From the NCBI RefSeq assembly GCF_964355755.1, contig NC_092677.1:23466101-23530100 (forward strand): DNA of 64,000 nt, written 5' to 3'. The DNA is from Antedon mediterranea. Its lineage: Eukaryota > Echinodermata > Crinoidea > Comatulida > Antedonidae. The notes beneath the pieces were generated by a model. The model saw only the letters and a list, made by a program, of their open reading frames with translations. It ran no database searches and was not told the DNA's origin. A program made the position numbers and the translations under genes. Shown one piece after another: positions 1-34,549 of the stretch; position 1 is the stretch's first letter; each line of letters begins with the position of its first letter.

Positions 1-807
1 GATGCGCTCTATTCAATGTGATGAGCTATGACGAAAGATACAAAAATCCTAAATTTTATATTCGCGTGGCCATACGATGACGTCACAATGTCCGGTTAGC
101 CATATTAATACCTGATCCGACATCTACAACTCATCTACTTCCAGAATATGTCATCCACAAAAAGTTGACCGTCTAGTTTAGAAATTACGACTGTTTAAAA
201 AAAGGCATATTTTAAACGAATTGTTTAACCTTTTCATAAAAAACGCGCGCAAATTGTCCAATTCGACGTGCTCGTATGACGTATCTTTAAGTCGAAATTG
301 TTTAAAATTTGGTAAAATTACTAGAAAAGGCTGGAAAAACATAAATTACGCGAAAAAAATACGTTTTCAATGCTACGTGCGCACCGCACACGTAAAAATG
401 TGCGCACGCGTGGGAATTTTTGACATGCTTAAAACGACATGAAACGCGTAGAAAGTTGATTATAAATTAATTTTGCGCAATTTGAAATTTTAAATGCGCG
501 TGCGCGCGTAACTTTGTGTAAAACACGCAATTTTTTTTCAACAGAAAGTTAGCGCATGATATAAATTAAACTTTTGCAAAGTTTCACTTTAAAATGTTAT
601 TTGGTTTTCGACATATGTTAAATACGAGAAAATCGTTAAATCGCGCGTACGTCACGTTGCGCAATTGTAAACGTCATGAAAAGCTTCGCATGACGACGTT
701 ACGTAAATGTCAAAATGTTAACATAGTTAACGAAATGTTATGTTTGCGAGTTTCAGAGAAAAGCGTTACACAAAAATCATACAGAAAGAAAGAAGAACTA
801 GACATGA

Positions 808-828
808 AACTCGTCACTTTGACGAGTT
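808..828. repeat. Conserved small hairpin at the monomer junction
   Basis: Perfect 8-bp stem AACTCGTC/GACGAGTT around the loop ACTTT, next to an actagacatg motif. The same hairpin recurs near 2382, 3905, 5428, 7182, 8705 and 11817, and inverted near 11580, always just downstream of the agaaagaaagaag tract. It marks the site where extra cassettes are found in some monomers. Confidence 0.8.
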
Positions 829-2342
829 AGTTATCCGCACGACAAACGCCACGTGCACGTCATACGTTGGAATATTGCACACGGAAAAAGATTATGGCAT
901 TGTGACCTGAACTGAAGAATATGATATGTTTTTAGTGCTGAATTCTGTTATTTTGTGTCATATAGTATACACAGTATAATCTGTATACATATCACATACA
1001 GTGTAGAATAGGTGAAATTACGGGACCCGCTATTTATTCAAATTTTTAACATATTGACGGTTTCAAAATGAAACGCGAATGTAGCAATTTCGGAAGGAAA
1101 TTATCTCAGCAACAACATATTAACGTGTGGAAGAAATTTGAACACGTGAAATATTGATGCACGTTCTTTTAAATGTAATGAACTATGACGCAAAAGATGA
1201 AAATACGACTTTTTTTATTTAACTGGCCATATGATGACGTCACAACATCCGATTGGCAAAATGTTTACATGATTTCGTATCTACAATCCAATAGCTTCCA
1301 GAAAACATTTTAATCGTGATTATCCCATTTTGTTCTTACGAGCGATAACAGATTAAAATTTACTGTAAAGATGAAATTAATGACCCAAGTAATTAACATT
1401 TTTAGGCATGATGACGTTACAAATATTAAAATATTTTTAGCTCATGCGAAAGGTAGTTGATTGACCTAGACAATATTAAAATCTCGGAGAAAATGGAATA
1501 CGGATAAGCGTGATGCGCTCCATTGAATGTGATGAGCAATAACGAAAGAGACAAAAATCCTATATTTTATATTTGTGTGGCCATACGATGACGTCAAAAT
1601 GTCCTGTTAGCCATATTAATGTATGATTTGATATCTACAACTCATCAACTTCCAGAATATGTAATAAAAATAACTTTCACCGTTTAGTTTAGAAACTACA
1701 ACTGTTTAAAAAAAGGCATAATTTTGACGATTTTTTTAGCTTTTTGATCAAAAACGCGCGTAAATTTTCCAATTCGACGTGCTCGTATGACGTAATTTAA
1801 AGTCACAAATGGTTTTAAAATGGTAAAATTACTCTAGAAGGCTGGAAAAACATAATTCATGAGAAAAAAAGATGTTTTTCACGGTACGTGGCCACCGCGC
1901 GCGTAAAAAAATGCGTGCACGTGGGAATTTTTGACATGCGCGAAATGTCATGAGTCGTGTAAAAAGTTGATTAAAAATTAATTTTACGCATTTTGAAACT
2001 TTAAATGCGCGTGCGCGCGTAACTTCTTGTAAAACATGCCATTTTTAATCAATAAAAAGTTTGCACTTGATATGACTTAAATTTTCACAAAGTGTCAAAA
2101 CTAAATTATGCTTGGTTTTTAGTCTATGAGCAATCATAAAAAATCATGAAATCGCGCGTAAGTCACGTTGCGCAACTCTGACGTCATTAAAAAATAGGAG
2201 GTGCACAACTTCACGTAAATGCCCATATGTTGACAAAGTTATGAAATGTTATGTTTACCCATTTTAGAGATACGCTCTGCACAAAAAGTGAGGGAGAAAG
2301 ACAGAAGAATAATATAAAATTGAAACAGGACGATTACAAGGA

Positions 2343-2366
2343 GTTATCCGCTACTAAGCGGATAAC
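2343..2366. repeat. Hairpin-ended cassette, single copy
   Basis: A perfect 10-bp stem GTTATCCGCT/AGCGGATAAC with a 4-nt loop lies directly before actagacatg. The preceding bases (gaaacaggacgattacaaggag) match those before the hairpins at 7053 and 13367. Monomers at 780 and 3890 lack this insert, so it is a variable cassette at a fixed junction. Confidence 0.75.
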
Positions 2367-5300
2367 TAACTAGACATGTAACTCGTCACTTTGACGAGTT
2401 TGGTTATCCGCCGCGCAAGTGGTGCAACATTAACATTAAGGGGATAGGTTGAGGACAAAAGGAAGTGTTCACGTTGGCATTATGACCTGAACTGAAGAAT
2501 ATGATATGTTGCTGAATTTTATTATTTAAATTCATATATAGTATACACAGTATAATCTGTATCCATATCACATACAGTGACATACATAGAATAGGTGAAA
2601 TTACGGGACCCGCTATTTATTGCAATTTTTAACGTGTTGACGGTTTTAAAATGAAACGCGAAGTTAGCAATTCCGAAAGGAAATTATCTCAGCAACAACG
2701 TATTAGCATGTAGAAGAAATTTGAATACGTGAAATATTGATGCGCGCTCGTTTAAATGTAATGAATTATGACGCAAAAGATGAAAATACGACCTTTTTTA
2801 TATAACTGGCCATATGATGACGTCACAACATCCGATTGGCAACATTTTTACATAATTTCGTATCTACAATCCAATAGCTTCCAGAAAAAGTTTTAATCGT
2901 GATTATCACATTTTATTCTTACGAGCTATAACAGATTAAAATTTACTGTAAAGATGAAATTGATGCCACACGTGATATAAATTTTTAGGCATGATGACGT
3001 CAAAAAAATTAAAATATTTTTAACTCATGCGAAAGATAGTTGATTGACCTAGACAATATCAAAATCGGGGTGAAAATGGAAAACGGATAAGTGGAGATGC
3101 GCTCTATTCAATGTGATGAGCTATGACGAAAGATACAAAAATCCTAAATTTTATATTCGCGTGGCCATACGATGACGTCACAATGTCCGGTTAGCCATAT
3201 TAATACCTGATCCGACATCTACAACTCATCTACTTCCAGAATATGTCATCCACAAAAAGTTGACCGTCTAGTTTAGAAATTACCACTGTTTAAAAAAAGG
3301 CATATTTTAAACAAATTTTTTAACCTTTTCATAAAAAACGCGCGTAAATTTTCCAATTCGACGTGCTCGTATGACGTATCTTTAAGTCGAAATTGTTTAA
3401 AATTTGGTAAAATTACTAGAAAAGGCTGGAAAAACATAAATCACGCGAAAAAAATACGTTTTCAATGCTACGTGCGCACCGCACACGTAAAAATGTGCGC
3501 ACGCGTGGGAATTTTTGACATGCTTAAAACGACATGAAACGCGTAGAAAGTTGATTATAAATTAATTTTGCGCATTTTGAAATTTTAAATGCGCGTGCGC
3601 GCGTAACTTTGTGTAAAACACGCAATTTTTTTTCAACAGAAAGTTAGCGCATGATATAAATTAAACTTTTGCAAAGTTTCACTTTAAAATGTTATTTGGT
3701 TTTCGACATATGTTAAATACGAGAAAATCGTTAAATCGCGCGTACGTCACGTTGCGCAATTGTAAACATCATGAAAAGCTTCGCTTGACGACGTTACATA
3801 AATGTCAAAATGTTAACATAGTTCACAAAATGTTATGTTTGCAAGTTTTAGAGAAAAGCGTGCCACAAAAATCATACAGAAAGAAAGAAGAGAAACTAGA
3901 CATGTAACTCGTCACTTTGACGAGTTAGTTATCCGCACGACAAAGGCCACGTGCACGTCATACGTTAGAATATTGCACACAGAAAAAGATTATGGTAATA
4001 TGACCTGAACTGAAGAATATGATATGTTGTTATTGCTGAATTCTGTTATTTTGTGTCATATAGTATATACATAATCTGTATACATATTACATACAGTGTA
4101 GAATAGGTGAAATTACGGGACCCCCCGTTTATTCCTATTTTTAACATGGCGACGGTATCAAAATGAAAAACTAAGACAGCAATTTGGGAAGGAAATTATC
4201 TCAGTAACAACATATTAACGTGCTGAAGAAATTTGAATACGTGAAATATTGATGCACGCTCTTTTAAATGTAATGAATTATGACGCAAAAGATGAAAATA
4301 CGACTTTTTTTATTTAACTGGTCATATGATGACGTCACAACATCCGATTGGCAAAATGTTTACATAAATTCGTATCTACAATCCAATAGCTTCCAGAAAA
4401 CGTTTTAATCATGATTATCACGTTTTATTCTGACGAGCTATAACAGATTGAAATTTACTGTAAAGACGAAAATAAGTGACCCACGTTATTTACATTTTTA
4501 GACATGATGACGTCATAAAAATTAAAATATTTTTAACTCATGCGAAAGATAGTTGATTGACCTAGATAATATAAAAATTGGGGTAAAAATGGAAAACAGA
4601 TAATTGGAGATGCGCTCTATTAAATGTCATGCGCTATGATGAAAGATACAAAAATCCTATATTTTATATTCGCGTGGCCATACGATGACGTCACAATGTC
4701 CGGTTAGCCATATTATTACATGATCCGATATCTACACCTCATCAACTTCAAGAATATGTCATCCACAAAAAGTTGACCGTCCAGTTTAGAAATTACGACT
4801 GTTTAAAAAAAGGCATAATTTTGACAAATTTTAACGAATGTTTTACCTTTTTCATCAAAAACCCACGTAAATTATCCAATTCGACGTGCCCGTATGACGT
4901 AATTTTAAGTCTAAATCGTTTAAAAGTTGGTAAAATTACTACAAAAGGCTGGAAAAACATAAATCACGTGAAAAAAATTGTTTTCAACGCTACGTGCGCA
5001 CGGCGCGCGTAAAAAAATGCGCACGCGTGGGAATTTTTTACCTGCTCAAAATGACATGAAACGCGTAGAAAGTGGATTAGAAATTGATTTTTCGCGTTTT
5101 GAAATTTTAAACGCGCGTGCGCGCGTAACTTCGTGTAAAACATGCCATTTTTTTTACAAAGTCAGTTAGCGCAAGATATAACTAAAACTTTTGTTAAGTT
5201 TCAATTTAAATTGTTATATGGTTTTCGATGTATGTTAAATACGCGAAATTCGTTAAAACGCGCGTAAGTCATGTTGTGCAATTCTGACGTCATTCAGAAA

Positions 5301-6944
5301 TAGAAAAGCACAACTTCAGGTGAATACCCATATGTTGACAAAGTTATGAAATGTTAACTTTACACGTTTTTGAGATATGCTCTGCACAAAAATGACAGAA
5401 AGAAAGAATAATACAGACTAGACATGTAACTCGTCACTTTGACGAGTTTGGTTATCCGCCGCGCAAGTGGTGCAACATTAACATTAAGGGGATAGGTTGA
5501 GGACAAAAGGAAGTGTTCACGTTGGCATTATGACCTGAACTGAAGAATATGATATGTTTGTTATTGCTGAATTTTATTATTTAAATTCATATATAGTATA
5601 CACAGTATAATCTGTATCCATATCACATACAGTGTAGAATAGGTGAAATTACGGGACCCGCTATTTATTGCAATTTTTAACATGTTGACGGTTTTAAAAT
5701 GAAACGCGAAGGTAGCAATTTCGAAAGGAAATTATCTCAGCAACAACGTATTAGCGTGTAGAAGAAATTTGAATACGTGAAATATTGATGCGCGCTCTTT
5801 TAAATGTAATGAATTATGACGCAAAAGATGAAAATACGACCTTTTTTATTTAACTGGCCATATAATGACGTCACAACATCCGATTGGCAATATTTTTACA
5901 TAATTTCGTATCTACAATCCAATAGCTTCCAGAAAAAGTTTTAATCGTGATTATCACATTTTATTCTTTCGAGCTATAACAGATTAAAATTTACTGTAAA
6001 GATGAAATTGATGCCACACGTGATTTAAATTTTTAGGCATGATGACGTCAAAAAAATTAAAATATTTTTAACTCATGCGAAAGATAGTTGATTGACCTAG
6101 ACAATATCAAAATCGGGGTGAAAATGGAAATCGGATAAGTGGAGATGCGCTCTATTCAATGTGATGAGCTATGACGAATGATACAAAAATCCTAAATTGT
6201 ATATTCGCGTGGCCATACGATGACGTCACTATGTCCGGTTAGCCATATTAATACCTGATCCGATATCTATAACTCATCTACTTCTAGAATATGTCATCCA
6301 CAAAAATTTGACCGTTTAGGTTAGAAATTACGACTGTTTAAAAAAAGGCATATTTTAAACGAATTTTTTAACCTTTTCATAAAAAACGCGCGCAAATTGT
6401 CCAATTCGACGTGCTCGTATGACGTATCTTTAAGTCGAAATTGTTTAAAATTTGGTAAAATTACTAGAAAAGGCTGGAAAAACATAAAATACCCAAAAAA
6501 AATACGTTTTCGATGCTACGTGCGCACCGCACACGTAAAAATGTGCGCACGCGTGGGAATTATTGACATGCTTAAAACGACATGAAACGCGTAGAAAGTT
6601 GATTAAAAATTAATTTTGCGCATTTTGAAATTTTATATGCGCGTGCGCGCGTAACTTTGTGTAAAATACGCAATTTTTTTTCAACAGAAAGTTAGCGCAT
6701 GATATAAATTAAACTTTTGCAAAGTTTCAAGTTGAAATGTTATTTGGTTGTCGAGCTATGTTAAATACGACAAAATCGTTAAATCGCGCGCAAGTCACGT
6801 TGCGCAATTGTAAACATCATGAAAAGCTTCGCTGCACATCTTCATGTGCACGAGGATATGTTGAGAAAGTTACAAAATGTTATGTTTGCAAGTTTTCGAG
6901 AAAAGCGTTCCACAAAAATCATACAGAAAGAAAGAAGAGAAATA

Positions 6945-7165
6945 AAAAGTTGATGTTGATGATGATTTCGTACAATCACAAGAGGTTATCCTGCAACTTC
7001 GTTGCGGATAACCAAAAAAAAAAAAAGATGATGAAACAGGACAGTTACAAGGAGTTATCCGCTGAGTGCGGATAACTAATAAAAAGTTGATGATGTTGAT
7101 GATGATTTCGTACAATCACAAGAGGTTATCCTGCAACTTCGTTGCGGATAACCAAAAATAAAAAG
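6945..7165. repeat. Cluster of three hairpin-ended cassettes
   Basis: Between the agaaagaaagaag tract and actagacatg lie three inserts, each ending in a GTTATCC/GGATAAC hairpin: 6984-7013 (imperfect 30-bp palindrome), 7053-7077 (perfect 10-bp stem, loop TGAGT) and 7124-7153 (same type as the first). The first and third share the upstream tttcgtacaatcacaagag. Their alternation and the spacing against the 2343 and 13335 clusters suggest repeated gain of modular inserts. Confidence 0.75.
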
Positions 7166-8692
7166 TTGACTAGACATGTAACTCGTCACTTTGACGAGTT
7201 TGGTTATCCGCCGCGCAAGTGGTGCAACATTAACATTAAGGGGATAGGTTGAGGACAAAAGGAAGTGTTCACGTTGGCATTATGACCTGAACTGAAGAAT
7301 ATGATATGTTGTTATTGCTGAATTTTATTATTTAAATTCATATATAGTATACACAGTATAATCTGTATCCATATCACATACAGTGTAGAATAGGTGAAAT
7401 TACGGGACCCGCTATTTATTGCAATTTTTAACATGTTGACGGTTTTAAAATGAAACGCGAAGGTAGCAATTCCGAAAGGAAATTATCTCAGCAACAACGT
7501 ATTAGCGTGTAGAAGAAATTTGAATACGTGAAATATTGATGCGCGCTCTTTTAAATGTAATGAATTATGACGCAAAAGATGAAAATACGACCTTTTTTAT
7601 ATAACTGGCCATATGATGACGTCACAACATCCGATTGGCAACATTTTTACATAATTTCGTATCTACAATCCAATAGCTTCCAGAAAAAGTTTTAATCGTG
7701 ATTATCACATTTTATTCTTATGAGCTATAACAGATTAAAATTTACTGTAAAGATGAAATTAATGCCACACGTGATTTAAATTTTTAGGCATGATGACGTC
7801 AAAAAAATTAAAATATTTTTAACTCCTGCGAAAGATACTTGATTGACCTAGACAATATCAAAATCTGGGTGAAAATGGAAAACGGATAAGTGGAGATGCG
7901 CTCTATTCAATGTGATGAGCTATGACGAAAGGTACAAAAATCCTAAATTTTATATTCGCGTGGCCATACGATGACGTCACAATGTCCGGTTAGCCATATT
8001 AATAACTGATCCGATATCTACAACTCATCTACTTCCAGAATATGCCATCCACAAAAAGTTGACCGTCTAGTTTAGAAATTACGACTGTTTAAAAAAAGGC
8101 ATATTTTAAACAAATTTTTTAACCTTTTCTTAAAAAACGCGCGCAAATTGTCCAATTCGACGTGCTCGTATGACGTATCTTTAAGTCGAAATTGTTTAAA
8201 CTTTGGTAAAATTACTAGAAAAGGCTGGAAAAATATAAATCACGCGAAAAAAATACGTTTTCAATGCTACGTGCGCACCGCACACGTAAAAATGTGCGCA
8301 CGCGTGGGAATTTTTGACATGCTTAAAACGACATGAATCGCGTAGAAAGTTGATTATAAATTAATTTTGCGCATTTTGAAATTTTAAATGCGCGTGCGCG
8401 CGTAACTTTGTGTAAAACACGCAATTTTTTTTCAACAGAAAGTTAGCGCATAATATAAATTAAACTTTTGCAAAGTTTCAAGTTGAAATGTTATTTGGTT
8501 GTCGAACTATGTTAAATACGACAAAATCGTTAAATCGCGCGTAAGTCACGTTGCGCAATTGTAAACATCATGAAAAGCTTCGCTGCACATCTTCATGTGC
8601 ATGACGATATGTTGAGAAAGTTACAAAATGTTATGTTTGCAAGTTTTAGAGAAAAGCGATCCACAAAAATCATACAGAAAGAAAGAAGACAA

Positions 8693-10021
8693 ACTAGACA
8701 TGTAACTCGTCACTTTGACGAGTTAGTTATCCGCACGACAAACGCCACGTCCACGTCATACGTTAGAATATTGCACACAGAAAAAATTATGGCATTATGA
8801 CCTGATCTGAAGAATATGATATGTTGTTAGTGCTGAATTCTGTCAATTTTGTGTCATATAGTATATACATGCAAACAGTATAATCTGTATACATGTTACA
8901 TACAGTGTAGAATAGGTGAAATTACGGGACCCGCCATTTATTCAAATTTGTAACATGGCGACGGTATCAAGATGAAACACTAAGATAGCAATTTCGGAAG
9001 CAAATTATCTCAGCAACAACATATTAACGTGTAGAAGAAATTTGAATACGTTTAATATTGATGCGCGCTCTTTTAAATATAATGAACTATGATGCAAAAG
9101 ATGAAAATACGACTTTTTTTATTTAACTTGCAATATGATGACGTCACAGCATCTGATTGGCAAAATGTTCACATGATTTCATATCTACAATCTAAGAGCT
9201 TCCAGAAAATGTTTTAATCGTGATTATCACATTTTATTTTGACGGGCTATTACAGATTAAAATTTACTGTAAAGATGAAATTAATGACCCACGTAATTAA
9301 AATTTTTAGGCATGATGACGTCATAAAAATTAAAATATTTTTATCTCATGCGAAAGATAGTTGATTGACCTAGACAATATTAAAATCTCGGAGAAAAAGA
9401 AATACGTATAAGCGTGATGCGCTCCATTGAATGTGATGAGCAATAACGAAAGACAAAAAAATTCTATATTTTACATTCGTGTGGCCATATGATGACGTCA
9501 CAACATCCGTGAGGTAAAAATTCTGCATGAATTCATATCTACAACATATCTGCTTACATATTAAGTTAAAAAAATTAGGGGTAATCGTTGATCCTGAGAA
9601 GCTATAAAACATTCAAAATAGGCATAATTTTGACAACATTTTGTAACTTTTTCAACTAAAACGCGCGCAAATGGGCTAAATCAACGTGTTCGTATGACGT
9701 AATTTTAATTTGAAATGATGTCAATCTTTTTGAAAATGACTAGGAAAGGCTGGAAAATCACAATTCAAGAGAAAAAAACATGATTTTCATGCTCTATGCG
9801 CACCGTGCGCGTAATATTTTTCGCGCGCGCGGTAATTTTGTACATGCTTAAAATGACATGAAACGCGTAGAAAGTTGATTAGAAATTATTTTTGCGCATT
9901 TTGAAATTTTAAATGCGCGTGCGCGCGTAACTTTGTGTAAAACACGCAATTTTTTTCAAACAGAAAGTTAGCGCATGATATAAATTAAACTTTCACAAAG
10001 TGTCAATTAAAAATCACTTTT
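8693..10021. repeat. Left arm of a 1,329-bp inverted repeat
   Basis: This arm is the reverse complement of 10281-11609; paired positions sum to 20302 throughout, so there are no length changes, and every stretch I compared was identical. It covers one monomer from actagaca through the second gatgcgct block to aaatcactttt. The lack of any difference means a very recent event, gene conversion between arms, or an assembly artefact. Confidence 0.9.
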
Positions 10022-10280
10022 TAGTTATCCGCACTTGGCGGATAACTCCTTGTTATTGTATGGGATCAATATTTTTTTCTGTATTATTCTTCTTTCTTTC
10101 TCGCTATTTTTGTGTAGAGCGTTTCTCTAAAATGTGTAAACATAACATTTTATAACTTTGACAACATGTGGGCATTTACGTGAAGTTGTGCACCTCCTAT
10201 TTTTGAATTACGTCAGAGTTGCGCAACGTGACTTACGCGCGATTTTATGATTTTTTATGATTGATCATAGATTAAAAACT
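10022..10280. repeat. Loop of the large palindrome
   Basis: The 259-bp spacer has two parts. Positions 10023-10047 are a perfect hairpin (AGTTATCCGC stem, loop ACTTG) followed by text that recurs inverted at 13391-13457. Positions about 10089-10280 are the monomer stretch from agaaagaaag back to the arm junction in reverse orientation; the same stretch appears forward at 11610-11800. Confidence 0.8.
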
Positions 10281-11609
10281 AAAAGTGATTTTTAATTGAC
10301 ACTTTGTGAAAGTTTAATTTATATCATGCGCTAACTTTCTGTTTGAAAAAAATTGCGTGTTTTACACAAAGTTACGCGCGCACGCGCATTTAAAATTTCA
10401 AAATGCGCAAAAATAATTTCTAATCAACTTTCTACGCGTTTCATGTCATTTTAAGCATGTACAAAATTACCGCGCGCGCGAAAAATATTACGCGCACGGT
10501 GCGCATAGAGCATGAAAATCATGTTTTTTTCTCTTGAATTGTGATTTTCCAGCCTTTCCTAGTCATTTTCAAAAAGATTGACATCATTTCAAATTAAAAT
10601 TACGTCATACGAACACGTTGATTTAGCCCATTTGCGCGCGTTTTAGTTGAAAAAGTTACAAAATGTTGTCAAAATTATGCCTATTTTGAATGTTTTATAG
10701 CTTCTCAGGATCAACGATTACCCCTAATTTTTTTAACTTAATATGTAAGCAGATATGTTGTAGATATGAATTCATGCAGAATTTTTACCTCACGGATGTT
10801 GTGACGTCATCATATGGCCACACGAATGTAAAATATAGAATTTTTTTGTCTTTCGTTATTGCTCATCACATTCAATGGAGCGCATCACGCTTATACGTAT
10901 TTCTTTTTCTCCGAGATTTTAATATTGTCTAGGTCAATCAACTATCTTTCGCATGAGATAAAAATATTTTAATTTTTATGACGTCATCATGCCTAAAAAT
11001 TTTAATTACGTGGGTCATTAATTTCATCTTTACAGTAAATTTTAATCTGTAATAGCCCGTCAAAATAAAATGTGATAATCACGATTAAAACATTTTCTGG
11101 AAGCTCTTAGATTGTAGATATGAAATCATGTGAACATTTTGCCAATCAGATGCTGTGACGTCATCATATTGCAAGTTAAATAAAAAAAGTCGTATTTTCA
11201 TCTTTTGCATCATAGTTCATTATATTTAAAAGAGCGCGCATCAATATTAAACGTATTCAAATTTCTTCTACACGTTAATATGTTGTTGCTGAGATAATTT
11301 GCTTCCGAAATTGCTATCTTAGTGTTTCATCTTGATACCGTCGCCATGTTACAAATTTGAATAAATGGCGGGTCCCGTAATTTCACCTATTCTACACTGT
11401 ATGTAACATGTATACAGATTATACTGTTTGCATGTATATACTATATGACACAAAATTGACAGAATTCAGCACTAACAACATATCATATTCTTCAGATCAG
11501 GTCATAATGCCATAATTTTTTCTGTGTGCAATATTCTAACGTATGACGTGGACGTGGCGTTTGTCGTGCGGATAACTAACTCGTCAAAGTGACGAGTTAC
11601 ATGTCTAGT
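10281..11609. repeat. Right arm of a 1,329-bp inverted repeat
   Basis: Reverse complement of 8693-10021. This is the only segment of the array in opposite orientation. The forward monomer resumes immediately after it at 11610 with agtttttaatctatgatcaa, the exact continuation expected after aaatcactttt at the end of the left arm. Confidence 0.9.
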
Positions 11610-13334
11610 AGTTTTTAATCTATGATCAATCATAAAAAATCATAAAATCGCGCGTAAGTCACGTTGCGCAACTCTGACGTAATTCAAAAATAGGAGGTGC
11701 ACAACTTCACGTAAATGCCCACATGTTGTCAAAGTTATAAAATGTTATGTTTACACATTTTAGAGAAACGCTCTACACAAAAATAGCGAGAAAGAAAGAA
11801 GAACTAGACATGAAACTCGTCACTTTGACGAGTTAGTTATCCGCACGACAAACGCCACGCGCACGTCATACGTTGGAATTTTGCACACGGAAAAAGATTA
11901 TGACATTATGACCTGAACTGAAGAATATCATATGCTGTTAGTGCTGAATTCTGTCAATTTTGTGTCATATAGTATATACAGTGCAAACGGTATAATCTGT
12001 ATACAGTACATGTTACATACAGTGTAGAATAGGTGAAATTACGGGTCTTCCTGTTTATACTTATTTTTAACACGGCTTCGGTATCAAAATGAAACACTAA
12101 GATAGCAATTTCGGAAGAAAATTATCTCAGCAACAACATATTAACGTGTGGAAGAAATTTGAATACGTAAAATATAGATGCGCGCCCTTTTAAATGTGAT
12201 GAACTATTACGCAAAATATGAAAATACGACTTTTTTTATTCAACTGGCCATATGATGACGTTACAACATCCGATTGGCAAAATGTTTACATGAATTCGTA
12301 TCTACAATCCAATAGCTTCCAGAAAACGTTTTAATCATGATTATCACGTTTTATTCTGACGAGCTATAACAGATTGAAATTTACTGTAAAGATGAAAATA
12401 AGTGACCCACGTTATTTTCATTTTTAGACATGATGACGTCATAATCATTAAAATATTTTTAACTCATACAAAAGATAGTTGATTGACCTAGACAATATCA
12501 AAATCGGGGTGAAAATGGAAAACAGATAATTGGAGATGCGCTCTATTAAATGTGATGAGCTATGATGAAAGATACAAAAATTCTATTTTTTATATTCGCA
12601 TGGCCATACGATGACGTCACAATGTCCGGTAAGCCGTATTGATGGATGATACATGATCTACAACTCATCATCTTCCAAAATACGTAATAAAAATAACTTT
12701 TACCGTTTAGTTTAGAAACTACGACTGTTTAAAAAAAGGTATAATTTTGACAAATTTTGACAAATTTTTGAACTTTTTCATCCAAAACGCACATAAATTA
12801 TCCAATTCGACGTGCCCGTATGACGTAATTTGAAGTCGAAATTGTTTAAAAGTTGGTAAAATTACTAGAAAAGGCTGAAAAAACATAAATCACGCAAAAA
12901 AATCTGTTTTTAACGGTACGTGTGCTCCGCGCGCGTAAAAATTTGCGCGCGCCTGGGAATTTTTGACATTCTCAAAATGACATGAAACGCGTAGAAAGTT
13001 GATTAGAAATTAATTTTGCGCATTTTGAAATTTTAAATGCGCGTACGCGCGTAACTTTTTGTAAAACACGCATTTTTTTTTCAAAAAAAAGTTAGCGCAT
13101 GATATAAATTAAACTTTTGCAAAGTTTCAATTTAAAATGTTATTTGGTTTTTGACCTATGTTCAATATATGAAATTCATAAAATCGCGCGTAAGTCATGT
13201 TGCGCAACTCTGACATAATTCAAAAATAGGAGGTGCACAACTTCACGTGAATGCCCTCATGCTGACAAAGTTATAACATGTTATGTTTACAAGTTTTTGA
13301 GATACGTGAGACACAAAAATGGGGGAGAAGGAAA
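11610..13334. repeat. Last forward monomers of the array
   Basis: Forward orientation resumes here with the tail of the interrupted monomer, then a type 1 junction hairpin at about 11817, the acgggtcttcctg block near 12042, and a final monomer start at 12535. These copies are more diverged than those at 1-8692, as is usual for the edge of a tandem array. Confidence 0.75.
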
Positions 13335-13589
13335 GAAAAAAAAAAAGTAACAGGACAGTTACAAGGAGTTATCCGCTCAATGCGGATAACTAATAATACA
13401 GAAAAAAATATTGATCCCATACAATAACAAGGAGTTATCCGCCAAGTGCGGATAACTAATAAAAAGTTGATGTTGATGATTTCGTACAATCACAAGAGGT
13501 TATCCTGCAACTTCGTTGCGGATAACCAATGATGATGATGATTTCGTACAATCACAAGAGGTTATCCTGCAACTTCGTTGCGGATAACC
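13335..13589. repeat. Terminal cluster of four hairpin-ended cassettes
   Basis: Four inserts follow one another, each ending in a GTTATCC/GGATAAC hairpin: 13367-13391, 13433-13457, 13498-13527 and 13560-13589. The last two are copies of one cassette sharing atttcgtacaatcacaagag. Array-type sequence ends right after the last hairpin. A CTAG followed by T lies at 13604-13608, 14 nt downstream, the arrangement expected of a Helitron 3' end, but no 5' TC end or Rep/helicase gene is visible. Confidence 0.75.
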
Positions 13590-14419
13590 AAATAGTAACT
13601 ACACTAGTTCAATAACTTATTAAAAGGTAGTTTTCCCTACAAAAACTATTTGAGGTTTTATGCGAGAGGTTACCCTAAAGGTAGCAAAACAAGACCTTAT
13701 TGATGAATATTACTAAAGGGCTCAACTTTCATTTATAGTATACTTGTATTGTTATCAAGCATGAAAACATGAGCTGGTTGACTAAATCCATTCTTGTGGA
13801 AAATTGTTTGCAATCACGCACAGATTAGATGACAATGCTTTATTTCTTTAGAGTAAACTAAAGACTGAGTCAGTACTATTAAAATATTCACATACTTGTA
13901 AATATAAAGAACACTTTGGCTACCAAATCGGAAGTATAAATACCCTATACTACAGGTATTGTCTACATATCTGATCCTTTTTAAAAAACATCAACTACTT
14001 ATTGATGTTGAAGATGAAAGTTTCCTTGTATATAGGCCTATTGTTAAATAATTTATTTTTATCTAACATTTATTTTACTTACAGTACTCTGGACGCACCT
14101 TCATTCAAGAAGTGTGTCACTGTTTTAAAAATGTAGCTTCCAAAAAAATTATTATTAAATTATTATATTTTTAATCACACCAGTTAATTGTTGTATTCGA
14201 TTGAAAACTTTCGTAGTCAACATAAAGATTCGTCGAGTACTTTTTTGTATTTGAATGGCAAATTGCTCAACAGAAAATCATTCGAATAAAAACGTTAAAC
14301 AAGGCAAGCTTTTTCATTGAGAACACTCTCAACACTATTGTGTCAAGTAAGTACTCAACGGAAAAACTATACTCAACGGTAAAATCCCAATTGAATACGA
14401 CAATTAATAATTTTTTTTT
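13590..14419. other. No gene seen
   Basis: AT-rich unique-looking sequence right of the array. I see no ORF with family resemblance, no tandem repeat and no clear terminal inverted repeat. Confidence 0.6.
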
Positions 14420-17637: not shown

Positions 17638-17807
17638 ATAGATGACAAATTTCGTTTTTGTAAAAGCACAAGTTAACGGAGTACTTACTCGAACGTTTCG
17701 ATCTCTATCAGAGATCCTTCTCAACTGACTGCGGAGTGTTAATGCAGCTTGGTCATTCTTGACGTCATCTGTTGATGACGTTGTACGCCTCCGGTTGTAG
17801 GTTGGAG
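17638..17807. repeat. Left pseudo-LTR of the Penelope-like element
   Basis: Reverse complement of 19487-19656, with paired positions summing to 37294 and no gap. It contains one TGACGTCA palindrome (about 17760), the hairpin word gatctctatcagagatc, and on the minus strand the hammerhead-like core described for the right copy. The ORF starts two bases after its inner end. Confidence 0.85.
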
Positions 17808-17808
17808 A

Positions 17809-19555
17809 GTGGGAACCATGGTGAGCGACACTAATGTTTACGAACTGCTAAAACGTAATCCAACACAAAACTATAAACGAAAAGTGGTCAACATCATAGG
17901 CAGGTTGTTCAAAGAAAAGAAAATCAACTACAGAGAGAAAGAATGGCTGTTTCCCACGGCTGAAATTGTACCTAGGTTGTATTGTCTTCCGAAGATACAT
18001 AAACCAAATTGGCCATTAAGACTTATAGTAGATAACATCAACACCGTTTTTTACACCGTTGCACAATTCCTCACCAAAATCCTGGGTCCGCTTGTCGGAA
18101 ACACAGAACATCATGTAACTTACTCAGGAGAGTTGGCGAGTGAACTAAAAGAAATAATAGTCAAACCAAGTGAAACATTTGTCTCGTTTGACGTAGTATC
18201 TCTGTTTACAAAAACACCAGTAGAAGAGGCCCTCAAAGTTGTCGAAAATCGCCTAACAACAGATCCGACACTTCTGGATAGAACTAAACTACATGTGACA
18301 GACATAATGGAGCTCCTCGGTTTAATTGTGAACAAAACCTATTTCTCGTTCAATGGTAACATTTATAGGCAAATACAAGGCATTGCTATGGGAAGCCCAA
18401 TAAGTCCTATATTGGCGAACTTGTATCTAGAGTGGCTCGAACATCAAGCCATAAACACGGCACCCACTAACATCAAGCCTGTGTATTGGAAACGATACGT
18501 TGATGATGTATTAGCTATCATCCCCATAGGTACAGAACATACATTTAACACACATCTTAATAACATCGATATAACTGACAATATCAAGTTCACCACAGAA
18601 TCGATGACAAACAACACAATACCTTTCCTGGACATGCTCATCACACTCAATGACAATGGAACAGTTACCACCTCAGTCTATCGGAAGCCCACTCACACAG
18701 ACCAATATTTACATTTCAACTCACATCATCCACTCGAACACAAACTGGGGCTTATAAACACGCTTGTGGACAGAGCTGAGAAGGTAGTGGGAGATATGGA
18801 TTTGAGGAAAGTTGAGATGGATAACATCAAGAAAGCGTTACACAACTGCCAGTATCCAGAGTGGTCCTTCCAGAGAGTTATGGAAAACCGAAAAAGAAAA
18901 AAGAACAAAGGACACGAACCACAGAAGGAAAAGATCAAGATGCGAGGTAGCATAGGAATCCCCTATGTAAAAGGAATGGCAGAAAGAATACGACGCACTC
19001 TCTCCTATCACAATGTCGGAACCTATTTCCTACCCCAAAATAAAATCAAGAATAGCCTCGTCCACCCAAAAGATAAAATCGAGAAGATGGATACATGTGG
19101 AGTAATCTACGAAGTCACCTGCCGCAACTGTCCACAAGTTTACATTGGGGAAACAGGGAGGGCATTACAAACACGAATTAATGATCACAAAAAAAGATGT
19201 TACAACAAACACGGGGGGAGTAATGACTAGGGCCTCCAGAACATCCACATCTTCGATCATACACAAATCTGCCATTACAGAACATGTCATAAAACACAAT
19301 CATGTACCGAACTGGGAGGCTACCATCTTAACCAAAGAGCCTAAACGCAAAGACAGACAGATTAGAGAATCATTACATATAAGGAGAAATAAAGAGAAGA
19401 CCATGAACCGGGACACTGGAGCCCACGAACTCTCGCATTTGTACAATGATTTGATAGACACACCACCTGGCCGAGCCCCGCACAACCTCCAACCTACAAC
19501 CGGAGGCGTACAACGTCATCAACAGATGACGTCAAGAATGACCAAGCTGCATTAA
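17809..19555 (+). pseudogene. Penelope-type reverse transcriptase/GIY-YIG, frameshifted
   Basis: The first frame (17809-19230, 473 codons) shows reverse transcriptase blocks in order: LPKIHKPNWPLRLIV (about residues 57-71), motif A VSFDVVSLFT (about 124), motif B QGIAMGSPISPILANLYLE (about 189), motif C RYVDDVLAI (about 229) and a block E region VYRKPTHTDQYLHFNS (about 288). It then enters a GIY-YIG domain: CGVIYEVTC, then VYIGETGRALQTRINDH. That frame stops at 19228. The rest of the endonuclease (SAITEHVIKHNHVPNW, then REKTMNRD-type and HELSHLY blocks) continues in the next frame to 19555. The switch lies at a run of six G (19213-19218), so a one-base indel there is likely. The N-terminal domain usual in this family is absent and the last codons overlap the right pseudo-LTR. 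It is a recent but dead copy. Confidence 0.9.
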
Positions 19556-19656
19556 CACTCCGCAGTCAGTTGAGAAGGATCTCTGATAGAGATCGAAACG
19601 TTCGAGTAAGTACTCCGTTAACTTGTGCTTTTACAAAAACGAAATTTGTCATCTAT
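19487..19656. repeat. Right pseudo-LTR of the Penelope-like element
   Basis: Inverted copy of 17638-17807. It includes the last 23 codons of the endonuclease frame, a TGACGTCA palindrome (about 19527) and the hammerhead-like core at 19583-19599. The two copies look essentially identical, arguing for recent insertion. Confidence 0.85.
19579..19610 (+). ncRNA. Hammerhead-ribozyme-like motif in the pseudo-LTR
   Basis: The order CTGATAGA-GATC-GAAAC (19583-19599) resembles the hammerhead core CUGANGA-stem II-GAAA, but with one extra base or substitutions in the first block and almost no stem II. Hammerhead motifs are described in pseudo-LTRs of Penelope-like elements, which is why it is noted. 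The palindrome gatctct-gat-agagatc overlaps it and could compete. Activity cannot be judged from sequence. Confidence 0.4.
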
Positions 19657-21020: not shown

Positions 21021-21680
21021 AACTAGAAAGCCACTCCGAGAGGGCATATCTCCGCCTACTGTAAAATTCTCTTACATAAGATTTCTCCGGTAAAAAAAAA
21101 AATATATATATATTTCTGCGTGTCTTAATGCTGTTTGTGATTTAGGCTAATTTCATTACAAGCATGTGTATGCGAGTTTGGTGTAATGGTTATGTAACAA
21201 GCCTTTCAATTAACAATAGCTTCAGTCGACTAACAATAGAACAGCAACGCGAAAATCAAACGAGTGAATTTGAAAAGAAATAGGTTTTTTAAACTACTCG
21301 CATCAAAAAACGTGCACATTATATCAGATTATGTTTTAAAATTACAAATCACAAATTATAACTCTTGCCTCTTGTTAAAAAATGAAGTTTTTTGGACAAG
21401 TAGTTTGAGAAAATGCAATTTCAGTTTACTTGTTACTTTAAGACTGCTCGCCGGCTTTTGAAAAATTCTGTCCTATCTTTTAACACTAGCATGTCTAAAA
21501 AAGTATACTAAAAAGTGGTCCAGAATTGGGACTGTGTTCCCAAATGGTCCCAAAATCTAATGGAATGGTCCTTGACCACATATCTACAGTGTATATGTCT
21601 ATTCATTTTGGTAAAGATCGTGTAATTACTTTTTGAGTAATCCTGCTAACAAACAAACAAACAAACAAACACACGCTACC
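21021..21680 (+). repeat. Dispersed repeat, copy 1
   Basis: Starts with aactagaaagccactccgag and ends in a (caaa)n tract after aatcctgctaac. It matches 50683-51357 in the same orientation over about 650 bp, and a partial inverted copy is at 41141-41290. The 50683 copy shows end motifs acctctgcc and ggcagaggt, so the family has short inverted ends. No coding potential is visible. The word order near the (caaa)n tract resembles a repeat seen widely in marine invertebrates. Confidence 0.75.
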
Positions 21681-24701: not shown

Positions 24702-27196
24702 TTAAGCTGTTGCTCCATTCTGTAACACATGCTGTTTTAATCTCTGCATTTCTTATTGTTTTTAGGGTAATATATGCATGCATACACAATAGCAAAATTC
24801 ACAACTGAACTGCTATGGGCAAAAAATTGGTATGGTTCATTCATTGAAGTTGTGGGTTAATTAAGCACTAAATATAAGGTACACTGTACATCAACATTGC
24901 TAAACAGTTGTTACAGTATATGAACATATAGTAGTTACAGTAACTGTTTAAAAAAACAGATGAATACACAAATATGTATTACCAATATATTACAAGTATT
25001 AATGTGTTAAGTATTTCTTTAGAGTACAATAATAAAGTAGTTCTGAATTACAGTAAAACAGATATTGTCTCATACTAAATACAGTTAAAAAACTGAAAGA
25101 TAAAACTTGCTAAATGCAAACACGTCTCTATAGAATTTAAAAATGTATATGTTTGATTAAAAATCATAATTTTGTTGTTTTAAAACATTTTAAAGTTGTT
25201 TACATCCTTTTAAATTAATATTGAAAAATAATTACAATATTTGTGGTTATTACGGTATATTAAATAGTTCTTTCATACAGTTACCAAATTTACATTAACT
25301 GTAGTTTTGTTTAATTGGAGCATTCTTTCAAATTTGAGAAGACCCACACTAAGCTGGGAATCAATTCATTCTTTGCAGGGTATAACATGCAGTTAATTTG
25401 AAAATTTAAATTTGCTGGCTTGAATTGAGCTCATGTACTACTTATAGTAGGAAGGTAAAGAGGAAGATGGAACTAATCTCTCAAATTTAACAGAAACTGC
25501 ATTCAAGAGCAGCAAATGCGGTATACTCTCTCAAAAATAATATAACTGCAGGTACAGTACAGTATCAAAAAGTAATTCATAATTTCATTTACAGGTAGCT
25601 GTTAAAAGAGGATAGTGCCACCCTCCCTCTCTGGTAGTGTCCCATCTTAGGCAAGTTTTTAAGCCCGTTTGATGTGATGTTGTACAGTACTGTTAAGTGT
25701 ACAATTGCTTTTGTGTTTCTTTATTTTTTAAACTGTCCAGACACCAGCAAAAGTGTGTTTCCATAGATCAAGATTGAGCCCCAATGAAACCAAACCATTT
25801 TTACCTGCACTATACCACCATATTGAAAAAAAAGAAGTTCCTGCCAAATATTGCAATTCCTCAATTAACCTTTTCAAGTAGCCTTTCCAGATGGTTTTGT
25901 TCAGTACAAAACACATAATCCTTCTACTACTACACAGTATATATGTGAATTTAAGCGTAGAAATGTTCTGCAATTTTCTTTTTATTCTCCATACCTTTAG
26001 TACAGTACTATGTACAGTATTATAAATATTTTAAAAAGAAAATATACTTTATAGTGAGGTACTGTGGTGCAGTATTTAGAGTATTGGGCATACAGTTGGC
26101 AAGTTCCGCCTTGTTCTTCTCCACCCCAGGTATAGGTACGGGTACTGGTATGTACCGAGAAGGTAACTGTAAGGTGAAACTTGTTAGAAAAGAGTGGCGT
26201 ACAATATGTACCAGGTACCAGTCAGTGTACTGTAAACATGCACAATACTGTAAATTAAGTCTGGCCCAAACGCTAAAGAAAATGGAGATGGGCAGTACAC
26301 AGATTTTCCAACCATCATATCCAAGGGTGTGTATATTGGCAGACATACAGCAGACTTTCACCATGTTAAACATTTATGAGAAAATTGTCTTCCTTATCCT
26401 CCAAGATAAGAAGATGTTAAAAATACATTTAAAATTGGGGTAAACAAGCGTACAGTACACATGCATGTCATTTCTAAATTTAAAATGTAAGATAAACAAA
26501 CCTATCAAACATTCGGGTTAGGGTTAGGTTAAATATAACCGAGGGATACAAAAAGTGTTTACTGGTTGTAACCTGAAAAAAAGTTGAGGCTTGATCTGGC
26601 AATTCAACTTGTAGAATTTTGAATTAATATTTTCGATTTGTTCATTTACTATTTATTTGCTACTGTTGTCGGTTTAAAGTTCATTTTGCTAATGTGATTT
26701 TTACTTGCTTGCTAGTGAAAAAAGGAAGTGAATTTCGATGACAGGTACAATACGAGCTACTGTATTATTATTGTGATTTAGTAATATTCGATAAGGTTTC
26801 ATCTTTGTAACACACACACGACACATGTCACTGTAGTATCGCATCACAGTTAACACATGATTCTACAGTACATTACAGTACATCGCGATCACTATCGCAT
26901 TACTACCAATGGTTTGTTTTTTTAATTTCGCCAACCATGCAATTCGACCAATCAAAAGTTCACCATTCATCGTATCGTCGCACTCATCATCTCGGCCGTT
27001 AAAAAAATGTTTTGATACTGTATCAGTCCTACTGTATACTAGCCTACTGTATTAATTATTTTAAAATATTGTCTTAAGTGCAAATTCAAATTTGAATGTT
27101 TTTTTTTCTGCGAAAAATGTTTACATATGATATTATATCAATTTTTTTTAATTTAAAGTATTAAATTTACAAGAAAAATTTGAAGAAAAAACCTAC
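24702..27196. other. Putative intron of the PSKH1-like gene
   Basis: Everything directly left of the splice donor at 27191-27196 should be intron on the minus strand. I searched for the next exon (kinase subdomains X-XI ending in a HPW motif) and found no convincing one here or further left. 26515-26530 has two and a half TTAGGG-like units, too few to matter. Confidence 0.5.
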
Positions 27197-28045
27197 CTCT
27201 CCAGTATATGAATATTTTGCCCGTAATATTTTTCTATATAATCTAGTTCTATTGTCATCATCAAATGGCATTCTACCACTTAAGAGGATATAGGTAACTA
27301 CACCTAGTGCCCAAAGGTCTACTGCGTTTGTATACGACTTCCGACATAAAATCTCCGGTGCAATATATTCAGGAGTTCCACACGTTGTATTCATCATTAC
27401 ATCATCACCACCTTTACGACAACTTGCTAATCCAAAGTCTGTTATCATTATTTTGGAATTTTTTCCTGGATGATAATATAGTAAATTTTCCGGTTTAATG
27501 TCTCGGTGTGTAATTCCTAAATTGTGCAAGTACTTGACAGCATCCAACACCATTCTCAGTACCTGAGTTGCATCCCTTTCATTAAAATTTCCCTTAGCAA
27601 CAACACGGTCAAATAGTTCTCCACCAGTTGCGAGTTCCATTACCATATATATTCTGTCTTTACTATCAAAAACTTCTATTAATTGGATAATGTGTGAATG
27701 CCTTACTCTTCTAAGAATTGATAGTTCTGTTTCACAAACCTCTTTGCCCTCCTTTCTTTTTTCTACCATTTTAATTGCATAAGGTTGCTTAGTCGTTCGA
27801 TGTTCAACACGAACCACCCGGCTAAAACTTCCAGTTCCAATTAATGCTTTAATTACATATTTAGCCGTCACTCTCGGATCAACCTTTACTTTGTATTTAT
27901 GTACTTTTGGTCTGCTGGTATTGTCTGGTTTAGAGTAAGGAGTTACAACTCCACTTCCAAAACCCGTAGTTTCCACATGTTTTACGAAGTCCTTCTTACC
28001 AATAATCGGGGAATCAGGGGCTAGCTTTCCACTACCGCAGCCCAT
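27197..28045 (-). CDS. PSKH1-like Ser/Thr protein kinase, first coding exon
   Basis: This exon encodes 283 residues of a CaMK-group kinase most like PSKH1, a Golgi/centrosome and nuclear-speckle kinase in vertebrates. Start chosen at 28045: MGCGSGK gives Gly2 and Cys3, the myristoylation/palmitoylation signal of PSKH1; the in-frame upstream ATG at 28132 would bury it. Motifs: PRVTAKYVIKALIG then the glycine loop GTGSFSRVV (about 70-78), Lys92 in AIKM, alpha-C Glu in CETELSILRRV, HRDIKPEN (180-187), DFG (203-205), TCGTPEYIAPE (221-231), and DLWALGVVTYILLSG. The frame ends at TYTGE-type text, where GAG|GTAGGT is a consensus splice donor (27196 downward). PSKH1 continues with PWPSV at this point, so the last kinase subdomains and C-tail are on a further exon not found in the window. 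Catalytic residues are intact. Confidence 0.93.
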
Positions 28046-29452
28046 CTTGGAAGCGATTGCCCGTGTTGGATCGACTGCCAGAACTAAGTACGGTAGGCTC
28101 AGGCATAACTCGATATAAGCAAGCACAAACAACGAATTTTCATTGCAACTAGATGCTTAAAATATCTATCAACCATCCAAGATCCATATCAGTTTAAAAG
28201 TTAAGGTTACTTCTTATTACTAGAATCACAATTCTGTGTTTTAACACTTAAAGTTCACTACCCAACGCCTGTCATATTCACCATGCTAACCACTATGTTT
28301 TTCTTATGTTTTGGTAGGTTCTTTGGTAGTTGCTTACGATCGGAGAAGACGATATTCATCCGCGGTGGTACCAAATGTAATGCGGTTTCTATATTCTCTT
28401 TTGACCTTCAAGAACACAAGATTACTACAGTATTTGAAGTGTATGTTTTAAATTACAAACAGCCAAAAACAACAGATTTATTTCTTTATTTTAACTTTAT
28501 CTATTGTTTGAATCGATGACTCATAATTTAAACAGTTGTAAATGATCATAGTTAAAATGAGTAATACACTCATCTCTGTGTTTACAAAATTATAATTTGT
28601 ATTTTGTGGTTGGTAAAACTTAGAAGAGACAGGACATTTTATGTACAGTAACAGTAATGTATATATATTTTTCTAAATAAGCAAAAAAAAAGTATCATTC
28701 CAATTTACAGTTTTGTTAAATGTTTCAGTTGAAAGAAAGAGGTTGGAGAGGGCGACAAAAGGTTGCAAACTTTGTATATATTTTTATTTTTATGAAAACT
28801 TCAATCATCATCATTAATTTAATTGTGTACTGTAGGCCTACTATAAAACATAGTTTGAATTTATTTGTCAGTTACAATTATTAATAATTTTCCATATAGT
28901 TCAGTCGTGGGAATATAATCGCAATAATGCGAAGAGTGGTTAAAACGTCACAAATGTGTCAAAGTACGGTATGCACTATCGCACCGCTTATCTTATGTTG
29001 ATTAATTGAAACAGACACTGATTATTTTTTTCTAATAGAAAAAAAATGTAAAACATGTCACCATGATTGTAGATTTTCAGTTGGTAAAAAAAGAGAGATT
29101 ATTTATAGACTCTAATGAATTCAAATACAGTGGAAGCAATTTGCCAAAAGGAAATTTCAGATCTAAATTTGGTAATGAAGTTAGCTAAGCTTTTTTTAGT
29201 TTACTTGTTATAACATAATAAGGCAATTACATGCCGAACGAGAGATTTAATTTACTCTGGAACACAAGGGAACTAAAGTGCAGCATTATAGTATTTGAAA
29301 ATTATATATCTAGGGCAGTACATGACCTGTTGATGTATTAATACATATGGACATACTAATAAATATATTAACTCTGATAACAAAAAGTGTTTATTAGAAG
29401 TGTAAACACATATGGTTCTTGGAAACTTACAATGCCTCACATAGTGGCCAAA
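28046..29452. other. Upstream region of the PSKH1-like gene, no exon identified
   Basis: This would hold the 5' UTR and promoter of the minus-strand kinase gene. I see no TATA box with usable spacing or CpG cluster. The open stretch at 28283-28519 (plus) has no family features. Confidence 0.5.
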
Positions 29453-33317: not shown

Positions 33318-34549
33318 TCCGACTCAATGTTAGATAAGTTCTGTTCATACTTCAGGGTATGTTCAGACTCATAGTGTTAGATAAGTTCTGTTCATACTTC
33401 AGGGTATGTTCAGACCGACAGTGTTAGATAAGTTCTGTTCATACTTCAGGGTATGTTCAGACCGACAGTGTTAGATAAGTTCTGTTCATACTTCAGGGTA
33501 TGTTCAGACCGACAGTGTTAGATAAGTTCTGTTCATACTTCAGGGTATGTTCAGACTCATAGTGTTAGATAAGTTCTGTTCATACTTCAGGGTATGTTCA
33601 GACTCATAGTGTTAGATAAGTTCTGTTCATACTTCAGGGTATGTTCAGACCGACAGTGTTAGATAAGTTCTGTTCATACTTCAGGGTATGTTCAGACCGA
33701 CAGTGTTAGATAAGTTCTGTTCATACTTCAGGGTATGTTCAGACCGACAGTGTTAGATAAGTTCTGTTCATACTTCAGGGTATGTTCAGACCGACAGTGT
33801 TAGATAAGTTCTGTTCATACTTCAGGGTATGTTCAGACCGACAGTGTTAGATAAGTTCTGTTCATACTTCAGGGTATGTTCAGACCGACAGTGTTAGATA
33901 AGTTCTGTTCATACTTCAGGGTATGTTCAGACCGACAGTGTTAGATAAGTTCTGTTCATACTTCAGGGTATGTTCAGACCGACAGTGTTAGATAAGTTCT
34001 GTTCATACTTCAGGGTATGTTCAGACCGACAGTGTTAGATAAGTTCTGTTCATACTTCAGGGTATGTTCAGACCGACAGTGTTAGATAAGTTCTGTTCAT
34101 ACTTCAGGGTATGTTCAGACCGACAGTGTTAGATAAGTTCTGTTCATACTTCAGGGTATGTTCAGACTCATAGTGTTAGATAAGTTCTGTTCATACTTCA
34201 GGGTATGTTCAGACTCATAGTGTTAGATAAGTTCTGTTCATACTTCAGGGTATGTTCAGACCGACAGTGTTAGATAAGTTCTGTTCATACTTCAGGGTAT
34301 GTTCAGACCGACAGTGTTAGATAAGTTCTGTTCATACTTCAGGGTATGTTCAGACCGACAGTGTTAGATAAGTTCTGTTCATACTTCAGGGTATGTTCAG
34401 ACCGACAGTGTTAGATAAGTTCTGTTCATACTTCAGGGTATGTTCAGACCGACAGTGTTAGATAAGTTCTTCTCATACTGTACTTTAGGCTATGTTCAGA
34501 CTCACAGTGTTAAATATTCTGCTTCTATTAGGGTATTTTCAGACTCTTA
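33318..34549. repeat. 47-bp satellite, 25 copies
   Basis: The monomer gttagataagttctgttcat.. recurs every 47 bp from 33329 to 34457 with no length change. Two variants of one 7-bp segment occur (actcata, T; accgaca, C) in the order T, CCC, TT, 11 C, TT, CCCCC. Apart from that segment copies are nearly identical, so amplification is recent. Only the last copies before 34550 are diverged. The array continues beyond an inserted element at 35480. Confidence 0.95.

What the first reader, a model, noticed from the sequence alone, without database searches (positions are those of the whole stretch)
8693..11806. A monomer carrying a reverse-complement copy of itself
Call the left arm X' (8693-10021), the following monomer stretch L' (11610-11800), and their reverse complements X and L. 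Elsewhere the array reads X' then L'. Here it reads X' - L - X - L', which is X' and L' with the reverse complement of the whole X'L' unit inserted exactly at the X'/L' joint. The arms are 1,329 bp with no difference found. A simple inversion would not give this order; insertion of an inverted copy at one precise point would, as would template switching during replication. The L part of the insert also carries one extra hairpin cassette (10023-10047) that the forward L' lacks.
Basis: partly seen in the sequence, partly recalled or inferred. Interest (0 to 1): 0.75.

Follow-up and report, generated by a model that had tools for sequence, protein, structure and literature searches.

The report
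Jumping element inserted backwards into its twin
The palindrome is one complete rolling-circle transposon (Helitron-like) that inserted in reverse into an identical copy of itself, inside a cluster that looks like a tandem array but reads best as elements inserted one inside another near their front ends; self-insertion is known behaviour, the orderly nest is the less usual part.

Summary
The arms 8693-10021 / 10281-11609 are 1,329 nt, 100% complementary, and the L pair is 195/195. The unit is a non-autonomous Helitron-like element: 5'-TTAG/TTGG, a 12-14-nt asymmetric terminal inverted repeat, a 3' hairpin, 3'-CTAG followed by T, no target duplication. The insert (INS) is 10021-11608 on +; its uninterrupted target site is preserved inside INS itself. 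The "extra hairpin cassette" is the host element's own 5' end, found at 13394-13459, cut off by another insertion, U1. Rejoined, the host equals INS letter for letter (1588/1588). That excludes an inversion, and excludes template switching on the present array. The surrounding 13.6-kb "array" parses as nested insertions, 7 of 8 in the same sense and 63-79 nt inside a host's 5' end. Only U1-in-U2 is proven to the letter; the other pairings are not settled by score. The host animal is probably a crinoid. The own genome could not be searched, so copy number and polymorphism are untested. Known kind, unusually clear example.

The parts
10021..11608 (+). INS: complete inserted Helitron-like element, 5'-TTAGTTATCCGC...CATGTCTAG-3', 1588 nt, opposite in sense to the other elements of the array
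8693..10021 (.). left palindrome arm (3' part of host element U2, plus one shared base at each end)
10281..11609 (.). right palindrome arm (3' part of INS, plus one shared base)
8694..10020 (-). host element U2, 3' part
13394..13459 (-). host element U2, 5' end (66 nt, hairpin cassette), cut off by U1; completes U2 to 1588/1588 identity with INS
11804..13393 (-). U1, intact A-type element (1590 nt) inserted in U2 after nt 66 at A|T
7170..8693 (-). U3, B-type element, body
13460..13529 (-). 5' piece (70 nt, B-type) assigned to U3
   Evidence: assignment inferred, not settled
5418..7015 (-). U4, intact B-type element (1598 nt)
7016..7079 (-). 5' piece (64 nt, A-type) assigned to U5
   Evidence: assignment inferred, not settled
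3896..5417 (-). U5, A-type element, body
7080..7158 (-). 5' piece (79 nt, B-type) assigned to U6
   Evidence: assignment inferred, not settled
2370..3895 (-). U6, B-type element, body
798..2369 (-). U7, intact A-type element (1572 nt)
13530..13592 (-). U8 (outermost element), first 5' piece; outer flank ends ...AGTTACTA|TTTGG
   Evidence: assignment inferred
7159..7169 (-). U8, second 5' piece (11 nt)
   Evidence: assignment inferred
1..797 (-). U8, start of body, running off the window

Best explanation
A 1.59-kb non-autonomous Helitron-like element (INS), identical to the element U2, inserted in opposite orientation into U2 after nt 261, at T|T if CTAG is taken as the 3' end, without target duplication or loss. 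This made a 1.33-kb perfect palindrome. Inferred mechanism: a rolling-circle transposase supplied in trans peels off a single-stranded copy ending at the 3' hairpin/CTAG, the copy closes into a circle, and the circle's joined ends are inserted in front of a T. Shown here: the ends, the empty site, identity with the reassembled U2, and that INS matches a U2 not split by U1. Inferred: that the donor was U2 itself or its immediate sibling; that the same process, in the other orientation and close to hosts' 5' ends, built the surrounding nest.
For: INS runs exactly from 5'-TTAGTTATCCGC to CTAG-3'. The 8 complete 3' ends in the array (7 minus, 1 plus) carry GACGAGTT(A/T)CATGTCTAG, and each is followed by T (7, INS). 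The host flanks joined at 10020/11609 occur uninterrupted inside INS. The U2 pieces 13394-13459 + 11609-11803 + 8694-10020 equal INS at 1588/1588, while the best other A-type match to INS is 84.5% (U7). 5' and 3' inverted repeats match by type (TTAGTTATCCGC/GCGGATAACTAA against TTGGTTATCCGC/GCGGATAACCAA): 4 of 4 intact elements (INS, U1, U4, U7) and U2 rejoined exactly; also U3, U5, U6 as I reassembled them.
Against: No transposase, circle or activity was seen. The site of INS is T|T, whereas 5 of the other 6 junction sites are A|T (the sixth, U4 in U5, is also T|T, in a T-run); shared T bases leave the exact cut ambiguous by a base. Identity with U2 would be less telling if the genome holds many identical copies; the genome could not be searched. 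No reads were available to confirm the assembly.
Confidence: 0.9

Rival explanations
1. Template switching or a replication-based rearrangement copied the neighbouring unit backwards into the joint.
For: Perfect identity and local origin.
Against: The insert joins the 66-nt cassette straight to L, but in the array those lie on either side of the 1,590-nt U1. One breakpoint is the CTAG end shared with 7 minus-strand elements, the other the TTAGTTATCCGC 5' end shared with U1 and U7. Possible only if it happened before U1 arrived and happened to stop at both termini.
Confidence: 0.04
2. Two tandem units, one partly inverted, with the spacer flipped by recombination between the inverted arms and the arms homogenised by gene conversion.
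For: Flip-flop and conversion between inverted repeats are established in general (own knowledge).
Against: Needs several events with breakpoints exactly at element ends. The 66-nt 5' piece outside the arms, 1.6 kb away behind U1, is also identical (66/66): probability about 1e-4 at 12.8% divergence, that of the closest other A-type pair (U1-U5), though 0.13 at 3%.
Confidence: 0.03
3. Assembly or library artefact (missed-adapter palindrome or amplification chimera).
For: Perfect long palindromes are a known artefact form (own knowledge); no reads available.
Against: A fold-back artefact would give X'L'LX around a centre (own knowledge), not X'-L-X-L'. It would not restore a 5' end that the local copy lacks, nor stop at element ends.
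Confidence: 0.03
4. For the array as a whole: a true tandem array made by rolling-circle read-through or unequal crossing-over, not a nest.
For: Head-to-tail, same-sense units; such arrays are described for bat and silkworm Helitrons as termination bypass (PMC4067079 section 15, read). The neighbours U3 and U4 are 97.0% identical, as a duplication would give.
Against: Of 7 head-to-tail junctions only U6|U7 joins CTAG to an intact 5' end; the other 6 join CTAG to a point inside a 5' end, and five 5' pieces (one in two parts) lie where nesting predicts. U1-U7 then measure 1572-1605 nt. U1-in-U2 is exact. Five of the six neighbour pairs compared differ by 16.5-20.2%. Against my own reading: in the pairing test the bracket pairing only ties for best of 120, B-type pieces being interchangeable, and the piece given to U5 scores 67 with U5, the same as with U8 and lower than with U2 (92), U6 (72) or U3 (70), no intact reference of its kind being at hand.
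Confidence: 0.15

Closest known systems
proto-Helentron-Pi (Phytophthora infestans; PMC4067079, passages seen)
   Same: 5' TT and 3' CTAG, insertion between A and T, no target duplication
   Different: About 14 kb and protein-coding; ours is about 1.6 kb, with no long frame seen, in a probable crinoid, with a palindromic 5' repeat
HINE / DINE-1-like elements, non-autonomous Helentrons (PMC4067079, passages seen; section 15)
   Same: Palindromic subterminal inverted repeats, a 3' stem-loop, preference for T-rich targets, variable number of Ts at the 5' end (as assigned: U3/U4 TT, U8 TTT, U6 TTTTT)
   Different: 3' end is CTAG; the 5' repeat starts 0-2 nt from the end and its partner lies 29-30 nt from the 3' end (2-4 and 38-60 in the mite HINEs); most sites are A|T; partner Helentron not seen
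FoHeli self-insertions, Fusarium oxysporum (PMC5148889, passages seen, section 16)
   Same: Nested self-insertion, several 5' termini in front of one 3' terminus, insertion in opposite orientation proposed; a three-copy tandem in Metarhizium explained as either repeated 5'-end insertion or rolling circle
   Different: In what I read there the route is inferred; here an intact sister copy (INS) shows one 5'-end insertion letter for letter, and eight insertions lie in one place
Helraiser (bat Helitron, PMC4778049, passages seen)
   Same: 3' hairpin and CTAG followed by T; circle with joined ends as intermediate
   Different: 5'-TC end and an active reconstructed element with its transposase; ours begins TTAG/TTGG with an asymmetric inverted repeat

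Membership tests
Helitron superfamily (rolling-circle transposons) | Hairpin about 10 nt before a 3' CTRR end | tested here: met
   AACTCGTCAAAGTGACGAGTT + 6 nt + CTAG in 8 of 8 complete 3' ends (7 printed, INS; pattern count)
Helitron superfamily (rolling-circle transposons) | No target-site duplication; host T after the 3' end | tested here: met
   T after CTAG in 8 of 8; empty sites found for INS and U1, the two insertions where an intact reference exists
Canonical Helitron1 | 5' TC and insertion strictly A|T | tested here: not met
   5' TTAG/TTGG; T|T at INS and at U4-in-U5
Helitron2 / Helentron group | Asymmetric terminal inverted repeat with hairpins at both ends | tested here: met
   12-14 nt repeat at the 5' end (2 nt in for U6) and 29-30 nt from the 3' end in 8 of 9 elements, of which 4 are intact and 4 reassembled by me; U8 runs off the window. 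Hairpins at both ends seen in the printed sequence
Helentron (HINE) proper | T|T insertion and an endonuclease-bearing partner | tested here: inconclusive
   Mixed A|T and T|T; the partner was not sought because the genome search did not complete
Helitron superfamily (rolling-circle transposons) | Rep/helicase protein in the autonomous partner | not tested

The most novel reading that the evidence does not exclude
This Helitron-like family targets a spot about 70 nt inside the 5' end of its own relatives, in the same sense, and so builds satellite-like head-to-tail arrays by serial insertion rather than by rolling-circle read-through; the palindrome records a copy that went into its own donor the wrong way round.
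Probability: 0.43. Interest if true: 0.6.

Novelty: new member of a known kind. Interest (0 to 1): 0.42.

Why it matters
Helitron tandem arrays have been put down to a bypassed end signal, and a published three-copy case left repeated 5'-end insertion and rolling circle undecided. Here one insertion can be checked to the letter, because the reversed copy preserves both its host's undamaged 5' end and its own empty target site. If the 5' hot spot holds genome-wide, some satellite-like arrays are nests whose order of growth can be read like brackets. A perfect 1.3-kb palindrome of a transposon could also yield double-stranded RNA against its family (inference, untested).

Tried and rejected
Simple inversion: wrong order. 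Template switching, flip plus gene conversion, artefact: see rivals. Circle integration by homologous recombination: it would leave CTAG joined to an intact 5' end and mosaic elements; 6 of 7 head-to-tail junctions are not of that form. Canonical Helitron1: 5' TC not met.

Led nowhere: the 21-nt 3' hairpin word scanned exactly in viral contigs (0 matches) and genome contigs (1 match, a Niallia contig, taken as chance and not followed up); both outputs warn that records of the window's own genome may be left out. Rfam at gathering thresholds gave 0 matches, ARAGORN 0. Paper search for crinoid + Helitron + genome assembly gave 0. The first attempt to rejoin U2 used boundaries off by one and gave 139 mismatches of 1589; with ends set at CTAG and TTAG it gave 0 of 1588. 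The pairing test over 120 permutations did not single out the bracket pairing: it ties at the top score, and the piece assigned to U5 fits U5 no better than others. The regular expression for the joint hit another place in U2 and INS; for INS the joint rests on the string test in the same call.

Full report
Observation. The palindrome is real and as described: arms of 1,329 nt with no mismatch, 259 nt apart, and a second identical pair of 195 nt. Of 26 inverted pairs (25 listed), the others inside the array are 74-99% complementary; the 99% one is the 71-nt cassette match to 13392-13462, and the only other 100% pair lies outside the array. The window is animal DNA: the kinase frame at 27167-28156 is nearest to serine/threonine-protein kinase H1-like of the feather star Anneissia japonica (95% over 86% of the query), then a starfish (76%; best 120 of 2368 hits listed), so the host is probably a crinoid.

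What the unit is. Read on the minus strand, the units end in the hairpin AACTCGTCAAAGTGACGAGTT, then (A/T)CATGT, then CTAG. There are 7 such ends on minus and 1 on plus, each followed by T. The 5' ends are TTAGTTATCCGC + hairpin (A type) or TTGGTTATCCGCAACG + hairpin (B type). A 12-14-nt stretch at the 5' end (2 nt in for U6) recurs inverted 29-30 nt from the 3' end, and the two types match their own 3' repeat: in the 4 intact elements INS, U1, U4, U7, in U2 rejoined exactly, and in U3, U5, U6 as I assigned their 5' pieces; U8 runs off the window. These are marks of non-autonomous Helitron-like elements of the Helitron2/Helentron group. The combination 5' TT, 3' CTAG, A|T is that reported for proto-Helentron-Pi (PMC4067079, passage seen).

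The insert. With these ends INS is 10021-11608 on plus, 1588 nt. Joining the host at 10020/11609 gives a sequence that occurs, unbroken, inside INS itself: the element carries a copy of its own empty site. There is no duplication and no loss. The site is T|T with CTAG as the 3' end; shared bases leave it ambiguous by one.

The cassette. The host U2 lacks, where it stands, the 66-nt 5' end that INS has. That 5' end is found, exact, at 13394-13459, on the far side of U1 (11804-13393). Piece + middle + 3' part of U2 equals INS at 1588 of 1588 (an earlier try with boundaries off by one failed). So U1 inserted into U2 after nt 66, at A|T, and INS matches a U2 not yet split. The best other A-type element is 84.5% identical to INS, so the donor was probably U2 itself or its immediate sibling; that is inference, since the genome could not be searched.

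The array. The same logic parses 1-13592 as U8[U3[U2[U1 ] with INS reversed inside ] ] [U6[U5[U4 ] ] ] [U7 ]. U1-U7 then measure 1572-1605 nt. The same-sense insertions lie 63-79 nt inside their hosts, at six places: 63 (U3), 64 (U4), 66 (U1), 70 (U2), 74 (U6, with U7 beside it), 79 (U5). Three hosts (U3, U6, U8) are hit at the same site CAACTTTTTA|TT. A|T or T|T sites number 777 on both strands of U2, 9 of them in nt 63-79 in the sense direction; at random, 7 or more of 8 has probability 2e-13. That figure treats insertions as independent, counts U6 and U7 apart, chooses the interval after seeing the data and leans on the bracket parse, so it is an indication, not a test.

Strength of the parse. 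U1-in-U2 is proven. Elsewhere the A/B types fit, but by alignment score the bracket pairing only ties for best of 120, because the B-type pieces are interchangeable, and the piece assigned to U5 scores 67 with U5, no better than with other bodies. Of six neighbour pairs compared, five differ by 16.5-20.2%, which does not look like fresh concatemers; U3 and U4 differ by only 3.0%, which could. U6 and U7 stand side by side at one site, so one of them landed at the other's edge, or they came joined.

Known context. Self-insertion, several 5' ends before one 3' end, and insertion in opposite orientation are discussed for Fusarium Helitrons (PMC5148889 section 16, read; passages). Tandem Helitron clusters are ascribed to bypassed termination in bat and silkworm, and Helitrons directly next to distantly related ones are noted in bat and maize (PMC4067079 section 15, read). 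Circles with joined ends are shown for Helraiser (PMC4778049, passages). In four Helitron searches of the paper library (listings of 20 of 45, 20 of 161, 15 of 29 and 15 of 20 papers; three papers opened) I saw no title on a letter-for-letter nest like this one; the library holds only open-licence papers.

Verdict. A real feature, well explained: a reversed self-insertion of a Helitron-like element in what is most likely a nest of its kin. The mechanism class is known; the clarity of the record and the apparent 5' hot spot are the points of interest.

Noticed in passing
17638-19656: Probable Penelope-like element (name is my inference): reverse transcriptase match plus a GIY-YIG match just under its cut-off, between 170-nt perfectly inverted repeats (17638-17807 / 19487-19656).
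   Followed up: partly
13394-13592: Three stacked 5' hairpin cassettes (13530-13592, 13460-13529, 13394-13459) in front of the intact element U1: a chimeric element with several 5' ends could be mobilised from here to the first CTAG (inference).
   Followed up: partly
33328-34544; 43568-45280; 52389-52772; 60908-61159: Minisatellite arrays with units of 47, 52, 51 and 28 nt (25.9, 32.1, 7.5 and 9.0 copies).
   Followed up: no
21021-21674 and 50683-51312: Direct dispersed repeat of about 650 nt at 88% identity, not classified.
   Followed up: no
27167-28156: Frame of a protein kinase H1-like (PSKH1) gene on the minus strand, 95% to Anneissia japonica over 86% of the frame.
   Followed up: partly
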